Of a stretch of DNA of 64,000 nt, positions 2,474-16,195 are shown piece by piece; positions within the stretch are counted from its first letter, which is position 1, and each line of letters opens with the position of its first letter. The notes under the pieces were generated by a model. It saw only the letters and a list, made by a program, of their open reading frames with translations, was not told where the DNA came from and made no database searches. Source of the stretch: Petropleomorpha daqingensis (GTDB lineage Bacteria > Actinomycetota > Actinomycetes > Mycobacteriales > Geodermatophilaceae); contig NZ_JACBZT010000001.1 in NCBI RefSeq assembly GCF_013408985.1, forward strand, positions 310,001 to 374,000. Direction: 5' to 3'. The position numbers and the translations under genes were made by a program.

Positions 2474-2914
2474 GTGTCCGTGTCCCAGGTCCGCCACGTC
2501 GCCGCGGCGGGCGGTCTCGCCCTGGCCCTCGGGCTGCTGACCGCCTGCGGCGGCAGCAGCGACGCCGCGTCGTCGTCGTCCTCGTCCTCGTCGTCGTCCT
2601 CGAGCAGCGCCGCGGGGGACTCCTCGGCCGGGCAGGCGCAGACCCTCACGGTCACCGAGGTCGGCTTCGACATCCGGCTGGAGAGCAGCAACCTGCCCGC
2701 CGGGGAGTACACGATCACCGTGAAGAACGAGGGCGACGCGACGCACGACCTGGTGGTCGAGCAGAACGGTGAGGACATCGCCCGGAGCGACACGCTCGGC
2801 CCCGGTGACTCGGGGACGTTCACCGTCACGCTCGAGCCCGGGAAGTACGTCTTCTACTGCTCCGTCGGCAACCACCGGGCGATGGGCATGGAGACGGACG
2901 TGACGGTCAGCTGA
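2474..2914 (+). CDS. Cupredoxin (plastocyanin-like) lipoprotein
   Basis: Secreted blue-copper lipoprotein, probably a periplasmic electron carrier or copper-binding protein. It has a signal peptide with lipobox LLTAC (Cys near residue 25), then a run of about 14 serines as linker, then a beta-sandwich domain. Type 1 copper ligands are visible as the His of THDLVV and the C-x(4)-H-x(4)-M pattern in CSVGNHRAMGM near the C terminus. GTG 2474 lies only 3 nt from GGGAGGT (2464-2470); GTG 2480 has better spacing and may be the true start. The stop overlaps the next gene's ATG (TGATG), so the two are translationally coupled. Confidence 0.88.
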   Translation: MSVSQVRHVAAAGGLALALGLLTACGGSSDAASSSSSSSSSSSSSAAGDSSAGQAQTLTVTEVGFDIRLESSNLPAGEYTITVKNEGDATHDLVVEQNGEDIARSDTLGPGDSGTFTVTLEPGKYVFYCSVGNHRAMGMETDVTVS

Positions 2915-3300
2915 TGACCCTCGTCCTGCGCATCGTCGGCGCCGCGCTGCTGGTCGGCGTGGCCGTGATCCACCTCTACCTGTGGCAGCAGGGCTACGAC
3001 TCGATCGACGTGATCGGTCCGGCGTTCCTGCTCGACACCGTGCTGGGCTTCGGTGGTGCGCTGCTGGTGCTCATCACGCCGCAGCGCTGGCTGCCAGTCG
3101 CGGCGGTGCTCGGAGCGCTGCTCTGCCTGGGCACGCTCGCGGCGCTGATCGTCTCGACGACCGTCGGCCTGTTCGGCTTCGTCGAGTCCACGCAGGCGCA
3201 GCTGTGGTGGGAGTCGTTCGCGGTCGAGGCGGCGGGCTTCGTCGTCCTGGTCACCCTGGCCGTGGTCGCCCGCCGCCGCACCCGGGTCGTCGGAGGCTGA
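2914..3300 (+). CDS. Small four-helix membrane protein coupled to the cupredoxin
   Basis: 128-residue integral membrane protein with hydrophobic segments at about 5-25, 35-57, 62-85 and 102-122 and a basic C terminus (RRRTR). It shares one base with the stop of the cupredoxin gene, so the two are made together, and it may anchor or exchange electrons with that copper protein (inference). I do not recognise a named family. A very strong hairpin begins inside the last codons. Confidence 0.7.
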   Translation: MTLVLRIVGAALLVGVAVIHLYLWQQGYDSIDVIGPAFLLDTVLGFGGALLVLITPQRWLPVAAVLGALLCLGTLAALIVSTTVGLFGFVESTQAQLWWESFAVEAAGFVVLVTLAVVARRRTRVVGG

Positions 3301-10954: not shown

Positions 10955-12373
10955 ATGACGACATCACCAGTGCAGGCAGGCAGCGCGTCCCCGACCGGTC
11001 GCCCGCGGGTGGTGATCGTCGGCACCGGCTTCGGCGGTCTCTTCGCGGCTCAGGCGCTCAAGAAGGCGCCGGTGGACGTCACGGTCATCGGCAAGACCAG
11101 CCACCACCTCTTCCAGCCGCTGCTGTACCAGGTGGCTACCGGGATCCTCTCCGAGGGCGAGATCGCCCCGGCCACCCGGGAGATCCTCAAGCGGCACGAG
11201 AACACCCGCGTCGTGCTGGGCGAGGTCACCGACATCGACCTGACGAACCGCACGGTCACCTCGACCGTCCTGGGCCGCACCAGCGTGCACCCGTACGACG
11301 AGCTGATCGTCGCCGCCGGGGCCGGGCAGTCCTACTTCGGCAACGACCAGTTCGCCGAGTTCGCCCCGGGGATGAAGAGCATCGACGACGCCCTCGAGCT
11401 GCGCGGCCGGATCTTCGGCGCCTTCGAGCTGGCGGAGCTGGCCACCGACCAGTCCGAGATCGACCGGCTGATGACCTTCGTCGTCGTCGGCGCCGGCCCG
11501 ACGGGTGTGGAGATGGCCGGGCAGATCGCCGAGCTCGCGCACCGCACGCTCAAGCACGACTTCCGCAACATCGACCCGACCACCGCGCGGATCATCCTGC
11601 TCGACGCGGCGCCCTTGGTGCTGCCGTCGTTCGGCGAGCGGCTCGGCGGCAAGGCCCGCCGCCAGCTCAACGAGATGGGCGTCGAGGTCCAGCTCGGCGC
11701 GATGGTCACCAACCTCGACGAGAACGGCATCGAGGTCAAGGACTCCGACGGCACCTCGCGGCGGATCAACGCGGCCACCAAGATCTGGGCCGCCGGCGTG
11801 CAGGCCTCCCCGCTGGGCAAGCAGCTCGCCGAGCAGTCCGGTGCGGCCGTCGACCGCGCCGGCCGCGTGTCGGTGCTGCCCGACCTGACCCTCCCGGGCC
11901 ACCCGGAGGTGCACGTCGTCGGCGACATGATCAACCTGGACAAGCTGCCCGGCGTCGCGCAGGTGGCGATCCAGGGCGGCCGGTACTCCGCCGACGCGAT
12001 CAAGCGCCGGATCGCCGGCAAGCCGGCGGCCGCGCCGTTCAAGTACTTCGACAAGGGCTCGATGGCGACGATCTCGCGGTTCTCCGCGGTCGCCGACATC
12101 GGCAAGTTCCGGTTCGGCGGCTTCATCGCCTGGGTGCTCTGGCTGGTCGTCCACCTGATGTACATCGTGGGCTTCAAGAGCCGGGTGACGACGGTGTTCC
12201 ACTGGGCGATCAGCTTCCTGGGCCGCGGCCGCTCGCAGCGCGTCGCCACCCAGCAGCAGGTCTACGGCCGGCTCGCCCTGGAGCACCTCGGGCCCGAGTT
12301 CGAGCAGTCGAAGACCGGCGGGCTGGCCGACGACGCGCCCGCCGAGGACCTCACCGGGCGCCGCTCCGCCTAG
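10955..12373 (+). CDS. ndh: Type II NADH dehydrogenase (NADH:quinone oxidoreductase)
   Basis: Single-subunit, non-proton-pumping NADH:quinone oxidoreductase at the inner face of the membrane. 472 residues from ATG 10955. FAD-binding VIVGTGFGGL (20-29), NADH-binding VVVGAGPTGVEMAG (about 171), the quinone-site-like AIQGG, and a hydrophobic/amphipathic stretch near 385-410 (GGFIAWVLWLVVHLMYIVG) for membrane attachment. The longer frame from 10766 is unsupported. The stop TAG (12371-12373) lies within CCTAGC, immediately followed by the insertion-sequence block, so the gene end is intact although the DNA behind it was replaced. Confidence 0.93.
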   Translation: MTTSPVQAGSASPTGRPRVVIVGTGFGGLFAAQALKKAPVDVTVIGKTSHHLFQPLLYQVATGILSEGEIAPATREILKRHENTRVVLGEVTDIDLTNRTVTSTVLGRTSVHPYDELIVAAGAGQSYFGNDQFAEFAPGMKSIDDALELRGRIFGAFELAELATDQSEIDRLMTFVVVGAGPTGVEMAGQIAELAHRTLKHDFRNIDPTTARIILLDAAPLVLPSFGERLGGKARRQLNEMGVEVQLGAMVTNLDENGIEVKDSDGTSRRINAATKIWAAGVQASPLGKQLAEQSGAAVDRAGRVSVLPDLTLPGHPEVHVVGDMINLDKLPGVAQVAIQGGRYSADAIKRRIAGKPAAAPFKYFDKGSMATISRFSAVADIGKFRFGGFIAWVLWLVVHLMYIVGFKSRVTTVFHWAISFLGRGRSQRVATQQQVYGRLALEHLGPEFEQSKTGGLADDAPAEDLTGRRSA

Positions 12374-12374
12374 C
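12369..12374. repeat. Left copy of IS481 target-site duplication (CCTAGC)
   Basis: CCTAGC here is identical to 14989-14994 at the other side of the insertion block and fits NCTAGN, the known 6-bp target duplication of IS481. It contains the ndh stop codon. It is no longer next to the IS481 end because an IS110-family element has been inserted between them. Confidence 0.7.
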
Positions 12375-12378
12375 TTTC

Positions 12379-12386
12379 GCCCTTGA
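12379..12386 (+). repeat. IS1111-type subterminal inverted repeat, transposase-3' side
   Basis: GCCCTTGA read inward, 3 bp inside the AGCT core. Partner at 13893-13900 (TCAACGGC on plus, GCCGTTGA inward); 7 of 8 positions agree. Confidence 0.5.
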
Positions 12387-12474
12387 GGTCAAGACCGTCG
12401 GGCGGGCAGGTGTCATCCGGCCGGGTGCGGGGGGCGTCCGGCCTGGGAGCGCAGCGCGGTGATCGGTCCGGCGG

Positions 12475-12612
12475 TGGGGCCTGGTCGGCAGGCTGATCAG
12501 ACGCCGTCGAGCGGCAGGCTTTCTTGTGCGCCGTGGGCGGCCCCAGGGCGAGCGGGCGGCAAGCTAGGTTGCGCCGTCGTGCGGCATAGCTGTCACAGCC
12601 GTCACCGCTCGC
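12475..12612 (-). ncRNA. Bridge RNA (seekRNA) of the IS110-family element
   Basis: Read on the minus strand, two stem-loops follow each other. Stem-loop 1 is closed by 12605-12612 with 12548-12555 (8 bp). It contains ACAGCTA (12593-12587), a hairpin GCCG-CACGA-CGGC (12585-12573), then CCTAGCT (12568-12562). Stem-loop 2 is closed by 12539-12545 with 12475-12481 (7 bp). It contains GAAAGC (12523-12518), a hairpin GCCG-CTCGA-CGGC (12515-12503), then ATCAGC (12497-12492). The first pair matches left target plus core and the complement of the right target. The second pair matches the element's own 3' end and the complement of its 5' end. This is the target-loop-then-donor-loop layout known for bridge RNAs. 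The 5' stem overlaps the last transposase codons. Fold and guides were assigned by eye. Confidence 0.78.
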
Positions 12613-13837
12613 TCTGGTGCCGGGCTCGACGGTAGCGCTGTTCGTCGAAGGGTTGTTGGGTCTGGAGCAGGGTGTAGGCCAGTCGGCAGGCGTGGCGGGC
12701 CAGGGCGATGCGGACCGGGATCGGGCGCAGGCCGCGGGCGCGCAGCTCGTGGGCGCGGTCGATGAACGGCCCGCAGTGCTGGGACAGGCCCCAGGCGAGG
12801 TTCATCAGCGCATCGCGGTGTTCGGGCAGCCCCTGACGGGAGATCGGGGTGCGCCGGTTGATCGTCGCCGACCGGTAGCTGCCCGGGGCCAGGCCGGTGG
12901 CCGAGTAGAGATGCTCCGCGGTGGGGAACCGGGCAATCGGCAGGCTGAACGCGGCGAAGGCTGCTGCACGACTGGTGGCCACACCGGGCAGCGTGGTGAG
13001 GATCTGCCCGGCGCTTTCGGCCAGCAGAGCGGTGATCTCCGCGTCGACCGCGGCGATGTCGGCAGCGATCGCCCGCCAGCGGGCCACGCTCCGGCTCAAC
13101 CGCGCTGCTCGTGCCGAGGCGTCGGGCGGCGGTGGCAGGCAGGCCCGCCACCGCCCGACCCAGAACTCCGCTTCGCTGGTGAGCACGCGCCCCCGGGCTC
13201 GAGCGCGCAGCGAACGGATCGAGGGCGGTCGGCCGGCGAAGGCCGCGGCGCAGTCCAGCACCGCCTGCCCGATCACGCTGTCGGCCGGCAGCGCCCGGCC
13301 ATGCCCGTCGGGTGCGGCCAGTCCGGGGCAGAGGGCATGCAGTTGATCGTGCAGCCGCTGCTGGGCCACCTTGTGCTCGCCGATCAGGCCGCGGCGGTGG
13401 CGAACAGCCGCGGTGAGCGCGTCCTGTTCCTGGTCGGGCACCGGCCGGCCCTGTCCTTGGCGGGCCAGGTAGGTCAGCGCCGCGCAGTCCCGGTCATCGG
13501 TCTTGAATCGCCGCGATCCCAGTTGTGCTCGGGCGGCGGTGGTCTCCGAGGGCGCGAAGAGCCGGACCGATCCGGGAAACCGCTGGTTGAGCTCGCGCAG
13601 CCAGGCCTGATGCAGCCCGCCGGAGGCCTCGATGGCGAACACCGGACCCGAGGGGCCGACGTGGTCCACGACCAGTCGGTGCAGCTGCTCCAGCCCCGGA
13701 CGCAACACCGGCAGCGACAGCGGCGGCACCACCTGGCCGACTTCACCGGTGCTCAACCAGACCCGATTGCTGACCTTCCCCGGATCGATGGCCACCACCA
13801 GCGTCGACGCCGGCAGCGCCTCGTGCAGCAAGCCCAC
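12602..13837 (-). CDS. IS110 family transposase (DEDD recombinase)
   Basis: 411 residues. The N-terminal RuvC-like DEDD domain shows VAIDPGK (about 15-21), FAIEASGG and KTDDRDCAAL. The C-terminal Transposase_20 domain shows LTTLPGVATSRAAAFAAF and TGLAPGSYRS with the conserved Ser expected to be the nucleophile. Proteins of this family cut and join DNA under guidance of a structured RNA encoded in the element's non-coding end. Start GTG 13837 is near the element's right boundary; the stop (12602-12604) sits inside the predicted bridge RNA stem. Length is typical, and no frameshift is seen, so the element may be active. Confidence 0.95.
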   Translation of the reverse strand: MGLLHEALPASTLVVAIDPGKVSNRVWLSTGEVGQVVPPLSLPVLRPGLEQLHRLVVDHVGPSGPVFAIEASGGLHQAWLRELNQRFPGSVRLFAPSETTAARAQLGSRRFKTDDRDCAALTYLARQGQGRPVPDQEQDALTAAVRHRRGLIGEHKVAQQRLHDQLHALCPGLAAPDGHGRALPADSVIGQAVLDCAAAFAGRPPSIRSLRARARGRVLTSEAEFWVGRWRACLPPPPDASARAARLSRSVARWRAIAADIAAVDAEITALLAESAGQILTTLPGVATSRAAAFAAFSLPIARFPTAEHLYSATGLAPGSYRSATINRRTPISRQGLPEHRDALMNLAWGLSQHCGPFIDRAHELRARGLRPIPVRIALARHACRLAYTLLQTQQPFDEQRYRRARHQSER

Positions 13838-13892
13838 GACAACCTCCCGTCCACCGCGGAAACGTCGTCAGGACGCTTCCGCAGGAACGGGG

Positions 13893-13900
13893 TCAACGGC
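13893..13900 (-). repeat. IS1111-type subterminal inverted repeat, transposase-5' side
   Basis: Reads GCCGTTGA inward on the minus strand, 4 bp from the AGCT core. Matches 12379-12386 at 7 of 8 positions. Confidence 0.5.
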
Positions 13901-13907
13901 TATCAGC

Positions 13908-13919
13908 TGTACCCAGCCA
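13908..13919 (+). repeat. IS481 left terminal inverted repeat
   Basis: Outer part of the left terminal repeat; exact match to the complement of 14977-14988. The similarity resumes further in and the transposase stop codon (13920-13922) lies within the repeat. Confidence 0.85.
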
Positions 13920-14885
13920 TCAGGTTGGTGCCAGCCGGCTGACCGGCGGCAGTCCGCCGAGTGCACTGTGGCGGCGCCGAGTGTTGTAGTGCTGGAGCCA
14001 GGGAGCAAGGGCGGCTGAGCGTTCACCGTTGCTGGTAAATGCCTGCCGGTAGGCCCACTCGGTGGCCAGGGTGCGGTTGAGCCGTTCGACTTTGCCGTTC
14101 TGCCACGGGCAGTGCGGCTTGATGAACACCTGTCGAGCGCCCAGGTCGGTGATGACGTCGCGGAGGGAGTACCGGTAGGCCCAGGCGTTGTCGGTCATCA
14201 CCCGCTCGATGCGGCCGATGCCGTGATCGGCGAAGTAGGTCGCGGCTCGGGCGAGGAACGCCGCGCAGGTGGTGCCCTTCTCGTCGGCTTGGATCTCGGA
14301 GTAGGCCAGCCGCGAGTAGTCATCGACCAGGGAGTGCACGTAGTCGAAGCCGACGACGGCCGAGCGGCGGCGGCTGGTGCTGCCCGCAGCGCGGCCGTGC
14401 GCACGCCAGCCCCCGCCGTCGGGGATGCGGGCAAGCTTCTTGACGTCCATGTGCACCAGCTCGCCGGGGGCCGACCGCTCGTATCTGACCGCGGTCACCT
14501 TCGAGGCCCGGATCATCTCGCCGGTCATCGGGTCCAGGACAGCCAGCCGGGGCTGCCCACGGCGGACCAGCACGCGGGACACCGTGCGGGCCGGCACGCC
14601 CAGCTCGGCGCCGATCCACGCGGGCCCTCGGCGCTGCTGGCGGCGTAGCTCGACGATGCGGTCCTCGGTCTCGGCCGGGATGCGCCGAGGGCTGGTGTGC
14701 GGGCGGCTGGACCGGTCGACCAACCCGGCCTCGCCCTCGTCCTTGAAGCGGTTGATCCAGGTCCGAACGCACTTGCGGGAGACCCCCATTGCCGCAGCGA
14801 TGTGCGCCTGGCGCCAGCCGGAGGCATGCCGCTCGACGATCAACTTCCGGCCGTGAACAGTCAGGCGAGCATTACCGTGGGACAC
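13920..14885 (-). CDS. IS481 family transposase (DDE integrase core)
   Basis: 321 residues from GTG 14885, which has GGAGG a few bases upstream; the frame is open to 14930 without support. The N-terminal helix-turn-helix pair (WRQAHIAAAMGVSRKCVRTW) is followed by an rve integrase core with catalytic Asp in VHMDVKK, Asp in VMTDNAWAY and Glu in NGKVERLNRT. C-terminal HYNTRRRHSALGGLPP is typical of the family. The protein recognises the TGTACCC termini and would insert at NCTAGN. The reading frame is intact. Confidence 0.95.
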   Translation of the reverse strand: MSHGNARLTVHGRKLIVERHASGWRQAHIAAAMGVSRKCVRTWINRFKDEGEAGLVDRSSRPHTSPRRIPAETEDRIVELRRQQRRGPAWIGAELGVPARTVSRVLVRRGQPRLAVLDPMTGEMIRASKVTAVRYERSAPGELVHMDVKKLARIPDGGGWRAHGRAAGSTSRRRSAVVGFDYVHSLVDDYSRLAYSEIQADEKGTTCAAFLARAATYFADHGIGRIERVMTDNAWAYRYSLRDVITDLGARQVFIKPHCPWQNGKVERLNRTLATEWAYRQAFTSNGERSAALAPWLQHYNTRRRHSALGGLPPVSRLAPT

Positions 14886-14976
14886 GAGAACCTCCGGGCG
14901 GATGTGGGCCTTAGACAAGCCACACCCCACTCGGAGGTTCTCCTGCGTTCAACCCTCAACGCTGTCACCAACGTCG

Positions 14977-14988
14977 TGGCTGGGTACA
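14977..14988 (-). repeat. IS481 right terminal inverted repeat
   Basis: TGTACCCAGCCA read inward on the minus strand. Exact partner of 13908-13919. Confidence 0.85.
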
Positions 14989-14994
14989 CCTAGC
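14989..14994. repeat. Right copy of IS481 target-site duplication (CCTAGC)
   Basis: Directly abuts the IS481 right end and is identical to 12369-12374. The CTA at 14990-14992 is, on the minus strand, the TAG stop of the carboxylate-amine ligase gene. Confidence 0.75.
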
Positions 14995-16195
14995 GCCCGG
15001 CGCCCTCGCGGACGACGGCCGCGGCGACCGCCCGGGGATCACCGGTCCGCAGCCAGGTCCGGCGCTGCCGCGTGGCCGACGTCCCCCGGAACAGCAGCTC
15101 CTGCGCCAGGACGACGACCTCCTCCCACTCACCGGCGGCGCGGAGGTCGTCCTCGAGCTCGGCGAGCAGCCGGCGCAGCGCGACGCGGGCGTCGACGAGC
15201 CGGCCGAGCTGGGGGTCGAACAGCTCGCCGCCGATCCCGTGCCGGGCGGCGCGCCAGCGGGCCGCGCGCAGCAGCTCCGGCCGCGGGTCGGGGAACGGCT
15301 CCTCGCGGACCGCCCGCGCCGCGAGCACCCGCACCAGCGAGCGGATCAGCGCGGCGTGCAGGACGGCGTCGTCCACCGACGTGCAGACGTCGCCGATGCG
15401 GAACTCGAGCGTGGGCAGGTGGTACGAGGGCCGCACGTCCCAGTAGAGGTGGGAGCTGTCGGCGATCACGCCGGTGGCGACCAGCCCGTCGACCACCTCG
15501 GTGAACCGCTGCGCGCTGCCGAACAGCTCCGGCGGGCCGGAGATCGGCCAGCGCGACCACCACTGGGTGCGGTAGCTGTCGTAGCCGGTGTCGAGGCCGT
15601 CGTGGAACGGCGAGCTGCCGGTCATGGCCAGCAGCAGCGGCAGGTACGGGCGGGCGCGGTCCATCACCGCCACCGCCGTCTCCAGGTCGGGGACGCCGAC
15701 GTGCACGTGGCAGCCGGCGATGTCCTGCTGCTGGGCCAGCACCGCCCACCGGACGACCATCGCCTCGTAGCGCGGGGCGGCGGTGACCTCCTGGTCGCGC
15801 CACGACGCGAAGGGGTGGGTCGAGGCCGGCAGCAGCGCGCGGCCCGCCGCGGCGGCGGCCGCCGAAGCCTCGGCGCGGGTCACCACCAGCTCGGCGCGCA
15901 GGTCGTCGAGCGTGCTGCAGATCCCGCTCGCCGTCTCCAGCTGGGTGGTGGTGATCTCGGCGTGCAGATGCGGACCCGCCTCGCCGAGCATGGCGGAGGC
16001 CGAGAGCTCCGCACTGGGCAGCAGGTCGAAGGTCTCGGGATCGACGAGGTGGAACTCCTCCTCGATGCCGAAGGTCGCCCCCGGCACGGCGGGCGGGGAC
16101 GGGCGTTCGAGCGTCGCGGCCACGCCGACGGGCGCGAGCGTCGCGGCGCCGGAGGCCGGGGACTCGGGGCAAGGGACGACGGAAGGACGTTCCAC
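14990..16195 (-). CDS. Glutamate-cysteine ligase family carboxylate-amine ligase (YbdK/EgtA-like)
   Basis: 401 residues. The GCS2 signature FGIEEEFHLVDPET (about 47-60) begins the ATP-dependent ligase domain. Later motifs include HAEITTTQLETASG, CHVHVGVPD and YWDVRPSYHLPTLEFRIGD. These enzymes join an amine to the gamma-carboxyl of glutamate. In actinobacteria, relatives either make gamma-glutamylcysteine for ergothioneine or are of unknown substrate. GTG 16195 with GAGGAG upstream is the start; the long frame upstream is unrelated shadow. The stop lies in the CTAG duplicated by the neighbouring IS481. No ergothioneine genes are adjacent, so the substrate is left open. Confidence 0.88.
   Translation of the reverse strand: MERPSVVPCPESPASGAATLAPVGVAATLERPSPPAVPGATFGIEEEFHLVDPETFDLLPSAELSASAMLGEAGPHLHAEITTTQLETASGICSTLDDLRAELVVTRAEASAAAAAAGRALLPASTHPFASWRDQEVTAAPRYEAMVVRWAVLAQQQDIAGCHVHVGVPDLETAVAVMDRARPYLPLLLAMTGSSPFHDGLDTGYDSYRTQWWSRWPISGPPELFGSAQRFTEVVDGLVATGVIADSSHLYWDVRPSYHLPTLEFRIGDVCTSVDDAVLHAALIRSLVRVLAARAVREEPFPDPRPELLRAARWRAARHGIGGELFDPQLGRLVDARVALRRLLAELEDDLRAAGEWEEVVVLAQELLFRGTSATRQRRTWLRTGDPRAVAAAVVREGAGR

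What the first reader, a model, noticed from the sequence alone, without database searches (positions are those of the whole stretch)
12369..13919. IS1111-type element inserted exactly at the junction of IS481 tip and its target duplication
Deleting one 1533-bp period joins CCTAGC to TGTACCC, i.e. a perfect IS481 target duplication next to a perfect IS481 terminus. The insertion point AGCT is built from both (AGC of the duplication plus T of the IS). The target guides in the RNA read across this junction. So the element seems programmed to recognise an IS481 scar, which is created anew at every CTAG where IS481 lands. Known parallel: IS4321/IS5075 (IS1111 group) insert in Tn21-family terminal repeats. 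A bridge RNA aimed at an IS481/CTAG junction is, to my knowledge, not described.
Basis: partly seen in the sequence, partly recalled or inferred. Interest (0 to 1): 0.85.

Follow-up and report, generated by a model that had tools for sequence, protein, structure and literature searches.

The report
RNA-guided insertion element at gene ends
A small mobile DNA element that uses its own RNA to choose where it lands did insert exactly at the edge of another mobile element, but not because it recognises that element: its RNA reads a rare 8-9 letter word built on a gene stop signal (CCTAGCTGT), and the other element happens to create that word when it lands in the right spot.

Summary
An intact IS110-family element (12374-13906, period 1533 bp) sits exactly between a CCTAGC target duplication and the TGTACCC tip of an IS481-family element (13908-14988; second CCTAGC at 14989-14994). 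Three further identical copies in the same genome, with the same guide RNA, lie at sites with no IS481; all four reconstructed targets share only CTAGCTG. Across relatives, guide and target agree at just 3 bases before GCT, plus GCTA and a co-varying G/A. So the guide reads CTAGC plus TGT and nothing deeper into the IS481. IS481 landing on NCTAGC makes that word: all four IS481-family copies in the genome have such a junction, and only this one is occupied. An independent IS110 relative in Geodermatophilus obscurus sits beside the other end of an IS481 remnant, so such junctions are recurrent but not special. CTAG is rare here and often a stop codon. All four targets are gene stop codons, two of them shared by convergent genes, and the element's left end rebuilds an in-frame TGA-TAG stop. 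The IS1111 label is also doubtful. Best reading: an IS110 bridge-RNA element with a short stop-codon-containing target word.

The parts
10955..12373 (+). NADH dehydrogenase-like gene (Pyr_redox_2, NDH2_C) whose TAG stop codon (12371-12373) is the CTAG hit first by IS481 and then by the IS110 element
12369..12374 (+). left copy of the IS481 target duplication CCTAGC; 12370-12373 is CTAG
   Evidence: NCTAGN duplications in relatives
12372..12373 (+). core dinucleotide (CT on the transposase strand), RE-side copy
   Evidence: core assignment by analogy with IS621 (PMC11208160)
12374..13906 (-). IS110-family element, 1533 bp counting one core dinucleotide; identical to three other genomic copies
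12602..13837 (-). transposase/recombinase gene, 411 aa (DEDD_Tnp_IS110, Transposase_20; NCBIfam transpos_IS110)
12479..12607 (-). predicted guide (bridge/seek) RNA region downstream of the transposase gene, two stem-loop modules
12586..12597 (-). left target guide loop UGUGACAGCUAU; hypervariable block 12591-12597; ACAGCU matches target
12561..12572 (-). right target guide loop GCAACCUAGCUU, complementary to AGCTAGG of the target
12516..12529 (-). left donor guide loop GCACAAGAAAGCCU (matches RE tip GAAAGC)
   Evidence: pairing by inspection
12490..12502 (-). right donor guide loop GUCUGAUCAGCCU (complementary to GCTGAT at the LE side)
   Evidence: pairing by inspection
13905..13906 (+). core dinucleotide, LE-side copy
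13898..13907 (-). left end, read on the transposase strand GCTGATAGCC: rebuilds an in-frame TGA-TAG stop for a gene ending xGC-TAG on that side
13908..14988 (-). IS481-family element, 1081 bp, tips TGTACCCAGCC.../...GGCTGGGTACA
13920..14930 (-). IS481-family DDE transposase, 336 aa
14989..14994 (+). right copy of the IS481 target duplication CCTAGC
14990..16195 (-). glutamate-cysteine ligase-like gene (GCS2) whose TAG stop is the same CTAG; before IS481 landed it was convergent with the NADH dehydrogenase gene and shared the CTAG (start codon not determined)

Best explanation
It is a recently active IS110-family element with its guide RNA downstream of the transposase gene. The RNA carries a left target guide (...ACAGCU) and a right target guide (CCUAGCU) that together specify about 8-9 bp, CCTAGC|TGT on the window's plus strand, with core CT on the transposase strand. 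The word contains CTAG, which is scarce in this genome and often a stop codon, so insertions fall at gene 3' ends. The RE side keeps the original TAG, and the LE side rebuilds TGA-TAG in the frame of a gene that ended xGC-TAG. At this locus IS481 first inserted at the CTAG shared by two convergent genes (NADH dehydrogenase and glutamate-cysteine ligase). Its CCTAGC duplication abutting its TGT tip created CCTAGCTGT, and the IS110 element then inserted there. The junction is one fortuitous instance of the word. Shown here: junctions, order of insertion, identical copies, guide-target agreement, stop-codon context. Inferred: expression and folding of the RNA, pairing with DNA, and recombination through a circle, from IS621 and the seekRNA systems.
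For: Four identical copies with targets CCTAGCTGTAC, CCTAGCTGTAC, CCTAGCTGTCG, ACTAGCTGAAG. CTAGCTG occurs only 23 further times in 5.38 Mb, against 2832 for the reversed control. Guide-target agreement at the three positions before GCT is 12/13, 11/13 and 9/13, then falls to near chance; 0 of 20000 permutations reach it. The right-guide base (C or T) co-varies with the target base G or not-G, 15:0 and 0:4 distinct guides. The RNA alignment shows a 7-nt hypervariable block in an invariant frame and a two-module fold 98.6% paired with compensatory changes in the second module. All four own targets are stop codons of recognisable genes, and the stop is rebuilt as EPYS** and ARDS**. Perfect CCTAGCTGT sites are occupied 3 of 5, other CTAGCTG sites 1 of 22 (p = 0.013; a contrast chosen after seeing the sites).
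Against: RNA expression is not shown, and the single-sequence fold is no better than shuffles. Some relatives match their guide poorly: Blastococcus L020 has a target GGCT against guide AGCT, and the G. obscurus guide has drifted. Permutations do not correct for relatedness of the guides. The fourth own target reads TGA where the guide expects TGT.
Confidence: 0.82

Rival explanations
1. One reading: the guide is specialised for IS481 scars: the element homes on junctions made when IS481 lands on CTAG.
For: The window junction and an independent insertion beside the opposite IS481 end in G. obscurus. The left guide in this lineage reads TGT, the IS481 tip, next to CTAGC. Four of ten CTAGCTGT sites in the genome (before IS110 insertion) are IS481 junctions.
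Against: Three of four identical copies are not at IS481. IS481 junctions are not filled more often than other CTAGCTGT sites, 1/4 versus 2/6. The guide does not read beyond TGT. Relatives with other 3-nt guides keep the CTAGC half. The other IS481 copies of the family that were checked carry no IS110.
Confidence: 0.08
2. Shared safe haven: IS481 and this IS110 element independently settled on CTAG because in high-GC genomes it marks stop codons, and their meeting follows from that shared preference.
For: CTAG is 16 in the window against 52 expected from dinucleotide shuffles. All four IS481-family copies and all four IS110 copies sit at gene stops. IS481-family insertion at CTAG stop codons is described for TnRErm46 (PMC6794481).
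Against: It does not by itself explain the exact base position at the junction, which needs the TGT-reading guide; it complements rather than replaces the best explanation.
Confidence: 0.4
3. The two elements moved together as one composite unit, so the adjacency is inherited rather than made by targeting.
For: They abut exactly.
Against: Only one IS481 of this type is in the genome while the IS110 element is present four times, three of them alone. In G. obscurus the IS110 relative is at the opposite end of the IS481. Each element has its own complete duplication or target signature.
Confidence: 0.03

Closest known systems
IS621 / IS110 bridge-RNA recombinases (PMC11208160)
   Same: DEDD plus Transposase_20 recombinase, RNA with separate target and donor loops each holding a left and a right guide, CT core, no target duplication
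   Different: RNA is downstream of the transposase gene, recombinase is 411 aa, and the readable target is shorter and built around CTAG/TTAG
IS1111 group, seekRNA elements (PMC11187229), including IS4321/IS5075 in Tn21-family terminal repeats
   Same: guide RNA region downstream of the transposase gene; a mobile element's end can serve as target
   Different: no 11-13 bp subterminal inverted repeats (best is 8 bp, one mismatch), longer transposase, bottom-strand match precedes top-strand match as in ISEc21; IS481 end is not the dedicated target
ISEc21 (IS110 type, PMC11187229)
   Same: guide order; its target lies inside other insertion sequences (IS3-family transposase genes); natural guide changes in a relative
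   Different: RNA upstream of the transposase gene; target is a coding motif, not a stop codon
IS481-family elements with NCTAGN duplications (TnRErm46/ISRe46 PMC6794481; ISLxc2 PMC2516522)
   Same: the IS481 here makes 6-bp NCTAGN duplications and uses CTAG at stop codons, leaving gene ends intact
   Different: here its junction was afterwards used as a target by an RNA-guided element

Membership tests
IS110 family | DEDD (RuvC-like) N-terminal domain plus Transposase_20 C-terminal domain | tested here: met
   DEDD_Tnp_IS110 and Transposase_20 above cut-off; NCBIfam transpos_IS110 141.6 vs 140 bits; similarity to IS621 and ISCro4 chains
IS110 family | guide RNA in the long non-coding end with guides matching the target | tested here: met
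   (by sequence; RNA not observed)
IS110 family | insertion without target duplication other than the core | tested here: met
   four copies joined at the core
IS110 family | circular intermediate | not testable with these tools
   needs PCR; a TTGAC box near RE could form a junction promoter (inspection only)
IS1111 group | long non-coding region downstream of the transposase gene | tested here: met
   about 228 bp downstream versus 69 bp upstream
IS1111 group | subterminal inverted repeats of 11-13 bp | tested here: not met
   best 8 bp with one mismatch
IS1111 group | transposase of 330-350 aa | tested here: not met
   411 aa; range from PMC11187229
IS1111 group | top-strand match 5' of bottom-strand match in the RNA | tested here: not met
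   bottom-strand match first, assuming the same strand convention as PMC11187229
IS481 family (neighbouring element) | IS481 DDE transposase, TGT/ACA tips, NCTAGN duplication | tested here: met
   303.6 vs 224 bits
Elements dedicated to another element's terminal repeat (IS4321-like) | copies found consistently in the terminal repeats of one transposon family | tested here: not met
   1 of 4 own copies at an IS481 tip

The most novel reading that the evidence does not exclude
A family of RNA-guided IS110 elements in Geodermatophilaceae and mycobacteria whose guide is fixed on a two-strand stop-codon word (GCTAG or GCTAA, giving TAG/TAA on one strand and TAG on the other) with a freely changing 3-nt extension, and whose left end rebuilds an in-frame double stop. 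They would thus be adapted to insert harmlessly at gene 3' ends, including CTAG shared by convergent genes and CTAG copied by IS481.
Probability: 0.35. Interest if true: 0.6.

Novelty: new variant of a known kind. Interest (0 to 1): 0.45.

Why it matters
It shows how a very short RNA guide can still find a safe address by reading a word that the genome avoids inside genes. It gives a natural series of guide-target pairs in which the 3-nt extension and one right-guide base change while the rest stays fixed, useful for learning how many bases a bridge RNA really reads. It also shows how one mobile element can create landing sites for another without any specialisation, a caution for reading adjacency as targeting.

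Tried and rejected
IS481-scar specialisation: rejected because identical copies lie elsewhere and IS481 junctions are not filled preferentially. Co-mobilised pair: rejected. Reverse order of insertion (IS110 first): rejected because the LE side has no CTAG for IS481 to use and the duplication brackets both elements. IS1111 membership: most tested features not met. Rfam search found nothing meaningful. Folding the window RNA alone gave no signal. Viral contigs held no relative; plasmids held two mycobacterial ones. Literature search for an IS110 element aimed at CTAG or stop codons, or beside IS481, found none in the held library. Two scripts had faulty orientation or pattern choices and were redone.

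Full report
Observation. The sequence at 12369-14994 reads CCTAG / element / AGC-TGTACCC ... GGGTACA-CCTAGC. Removing one 1533-bp period restores CCTAGCTGTACCC, an IS481 target duplication abutting an IS481 tip. The inner element carries a 411-aa IS110-family transposase and the outer one a 336-aa IS481-family transposase. IS481 must have landed first: the duplication brackets both elements, and the IS110 element's LE side offers no CTAG.

Other copies. The genome (one contig, 5.38 Mb) holds four copies of the element that are identical over the whole unit. Their reconstructed targets are GCCTAGCTGTACCC (window), GCCTAGCTGTACGG, CCCTAGCTGTCGCG and GACTAGCTGAAGGC. Only CTAGCTG is common. The flanks of the other three are ordinary genes: a transporter and an FMN reductase, MurB and a short-chain dehydrogenase, and a sigma factor. 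The same guide RNA therefore uses sites that have nothing to do with IS481.

IS481 side. The genome has exactly four IS481-family copies over the family cut-off: the one in the window and three of another type, about 53% identical in protein. All four have NCTAGC duplications and so each makes a CTAGC|TGT junction. Three are empty. Before IS110 insertion the genome had ten CTAGCTGT words, four at IS481 tips; one of the four and two of the six others are filled. There is no sign of preference for the IS481 junction. In relatives only those IS481 copies with C after CTAG on one side, or G before it on the other, make the word. A second case does exist: in G. obscurus a relative of the IS110 element (about 86% identical in DNA, frameshifted) sits beside a remnant of IS481, at the opposite tip. 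The junction is thus a recurrent but not a dedicated target.

What the guide reads. Downstream of the transposase gene, on its strand, lies a region that aligns over 23 family members with 83% mean identity, broken by a 7-nt hypervariable block. Two modules of the same layout (outer CGGC/GCCG, inner GCCG/CGGC hairpin) are paired in 98.6% of cells, with compensatory changes in the second module; folding of the single sequence gives no support. The first module's left strand ends in NNN-GCUA and its right strand holds C[C/U]UAGCU. Over 13 distinct guides the three bases before GCT agree with the target in 12, 11 and 9 cases, then agreement falls to near chance; no permutation of 20000 reaches the total. 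The right guide has C when the target reads GCTAG and U in the members whose target reads GCTAA (one GCTAT), 15:0 and 0:4. These tests do not correct for relatedness. For this element the guide reads ACA-GCT-AG(G), that is CCTAGC-TGT: it touches only the first three bases of IS481. Within CTAGCTG, the nine-base word CCTAGCTGT is filled 3 times of 5, the rest once of 22 (p = 0.013; this split was chosen after seeing the sites).

Stop codons. CTAG is rare: 16 in the window against 52 in shuffles that keep dinucleotides, and CTAGCTG is 23 against 2832 for the reversed word in the genome. All four targets are stop codons of real genes, two of them CTAGs shared by convergent genes; the window's CTAG was itself shared by the NADH dehydrogenase and glutamate-cysteine ligase genes before IS481 came. 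On the RE side TAG is kept. On the LE side the end GC-TGA-TAG puts a stop in the frame of a gene that ended xGC-TAG, as seen in two copies, and the motif recurs in the LEs found in relatives. Over 16 family members, 11 targets are at gene-like stops against 3 of 41 other GCTAR words in the same flanks (p = 6e-6; one or two of the 11 rest on short frames, and the four own copies share one guide). In this genome alone 4/4 against 10/23 empty CTAGCTG words is not significant (p = 0.10). Loss of harmful insertions by selection could give the same picture, so adaptation to stop codons is a suggestion only.

Classification. By domain content and RNA guide it is an IS110-family element. The IS1111 label rests on RNA location; subterminal repeats, transposase length and guide order do not fit (PMC11187229). 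That paper notes IS110-type elements with a downstream non-coding region, so this arrangement is known.

Literature. Insertion of such elements in other mobile elements is known: IS4321/IS5075 in Tn21-family ends, and ISEc21 in IS3-family genes (PMC11187229). IS481-family use of CTAG stop codons is known (PMC6794481, PMC2516522). I found no report of an IS110-family element aimed at CTAG or stop codons in the held library, which does not cover subscription journals or ISfinder.

Noticed in passing
L131 (G084), L135 (G095), L136, L137, L138, L140: Copies of the guide-RNA region and/or RE without a recognisable transposase gene in other Geodermatophilaceae; those with a clear RE end at GCTAG. 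They may be relics or non-autonomous derivatives.
   Followed up: partly
L030 (G133), 1342-1868 of the reverse strand: A 526-bp internally deleted relative with both ends and a guide whose ACA matches its target (TGCACAGCT).
   Followed up: partly
L078, L084, L086, L087 (Mycobacterium interjectum): Four copies or parts with one RNA whose right guide has U; all REs end at GCTAA, an example of natural reprogramming from GCTAG.
   Followed up: yes
L061, L065, L069 (genome 2664843, 3628279, 4788063): Three copies of another IS481-family element, all on NCTAGC at gene stop codons (PhoH, an NAD-binding dehydrogenase, a mycothiol-dependent isomerase); their empty CTAGCTGTC junctions match the guide.
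   Followed up: yes
L089 (Modestobacter MAG), 2782-3035: An IS481-like transposase fragment directly at the truncation of the IS110 transposase gene; looks like a later rearrangement.
   Followed up: no
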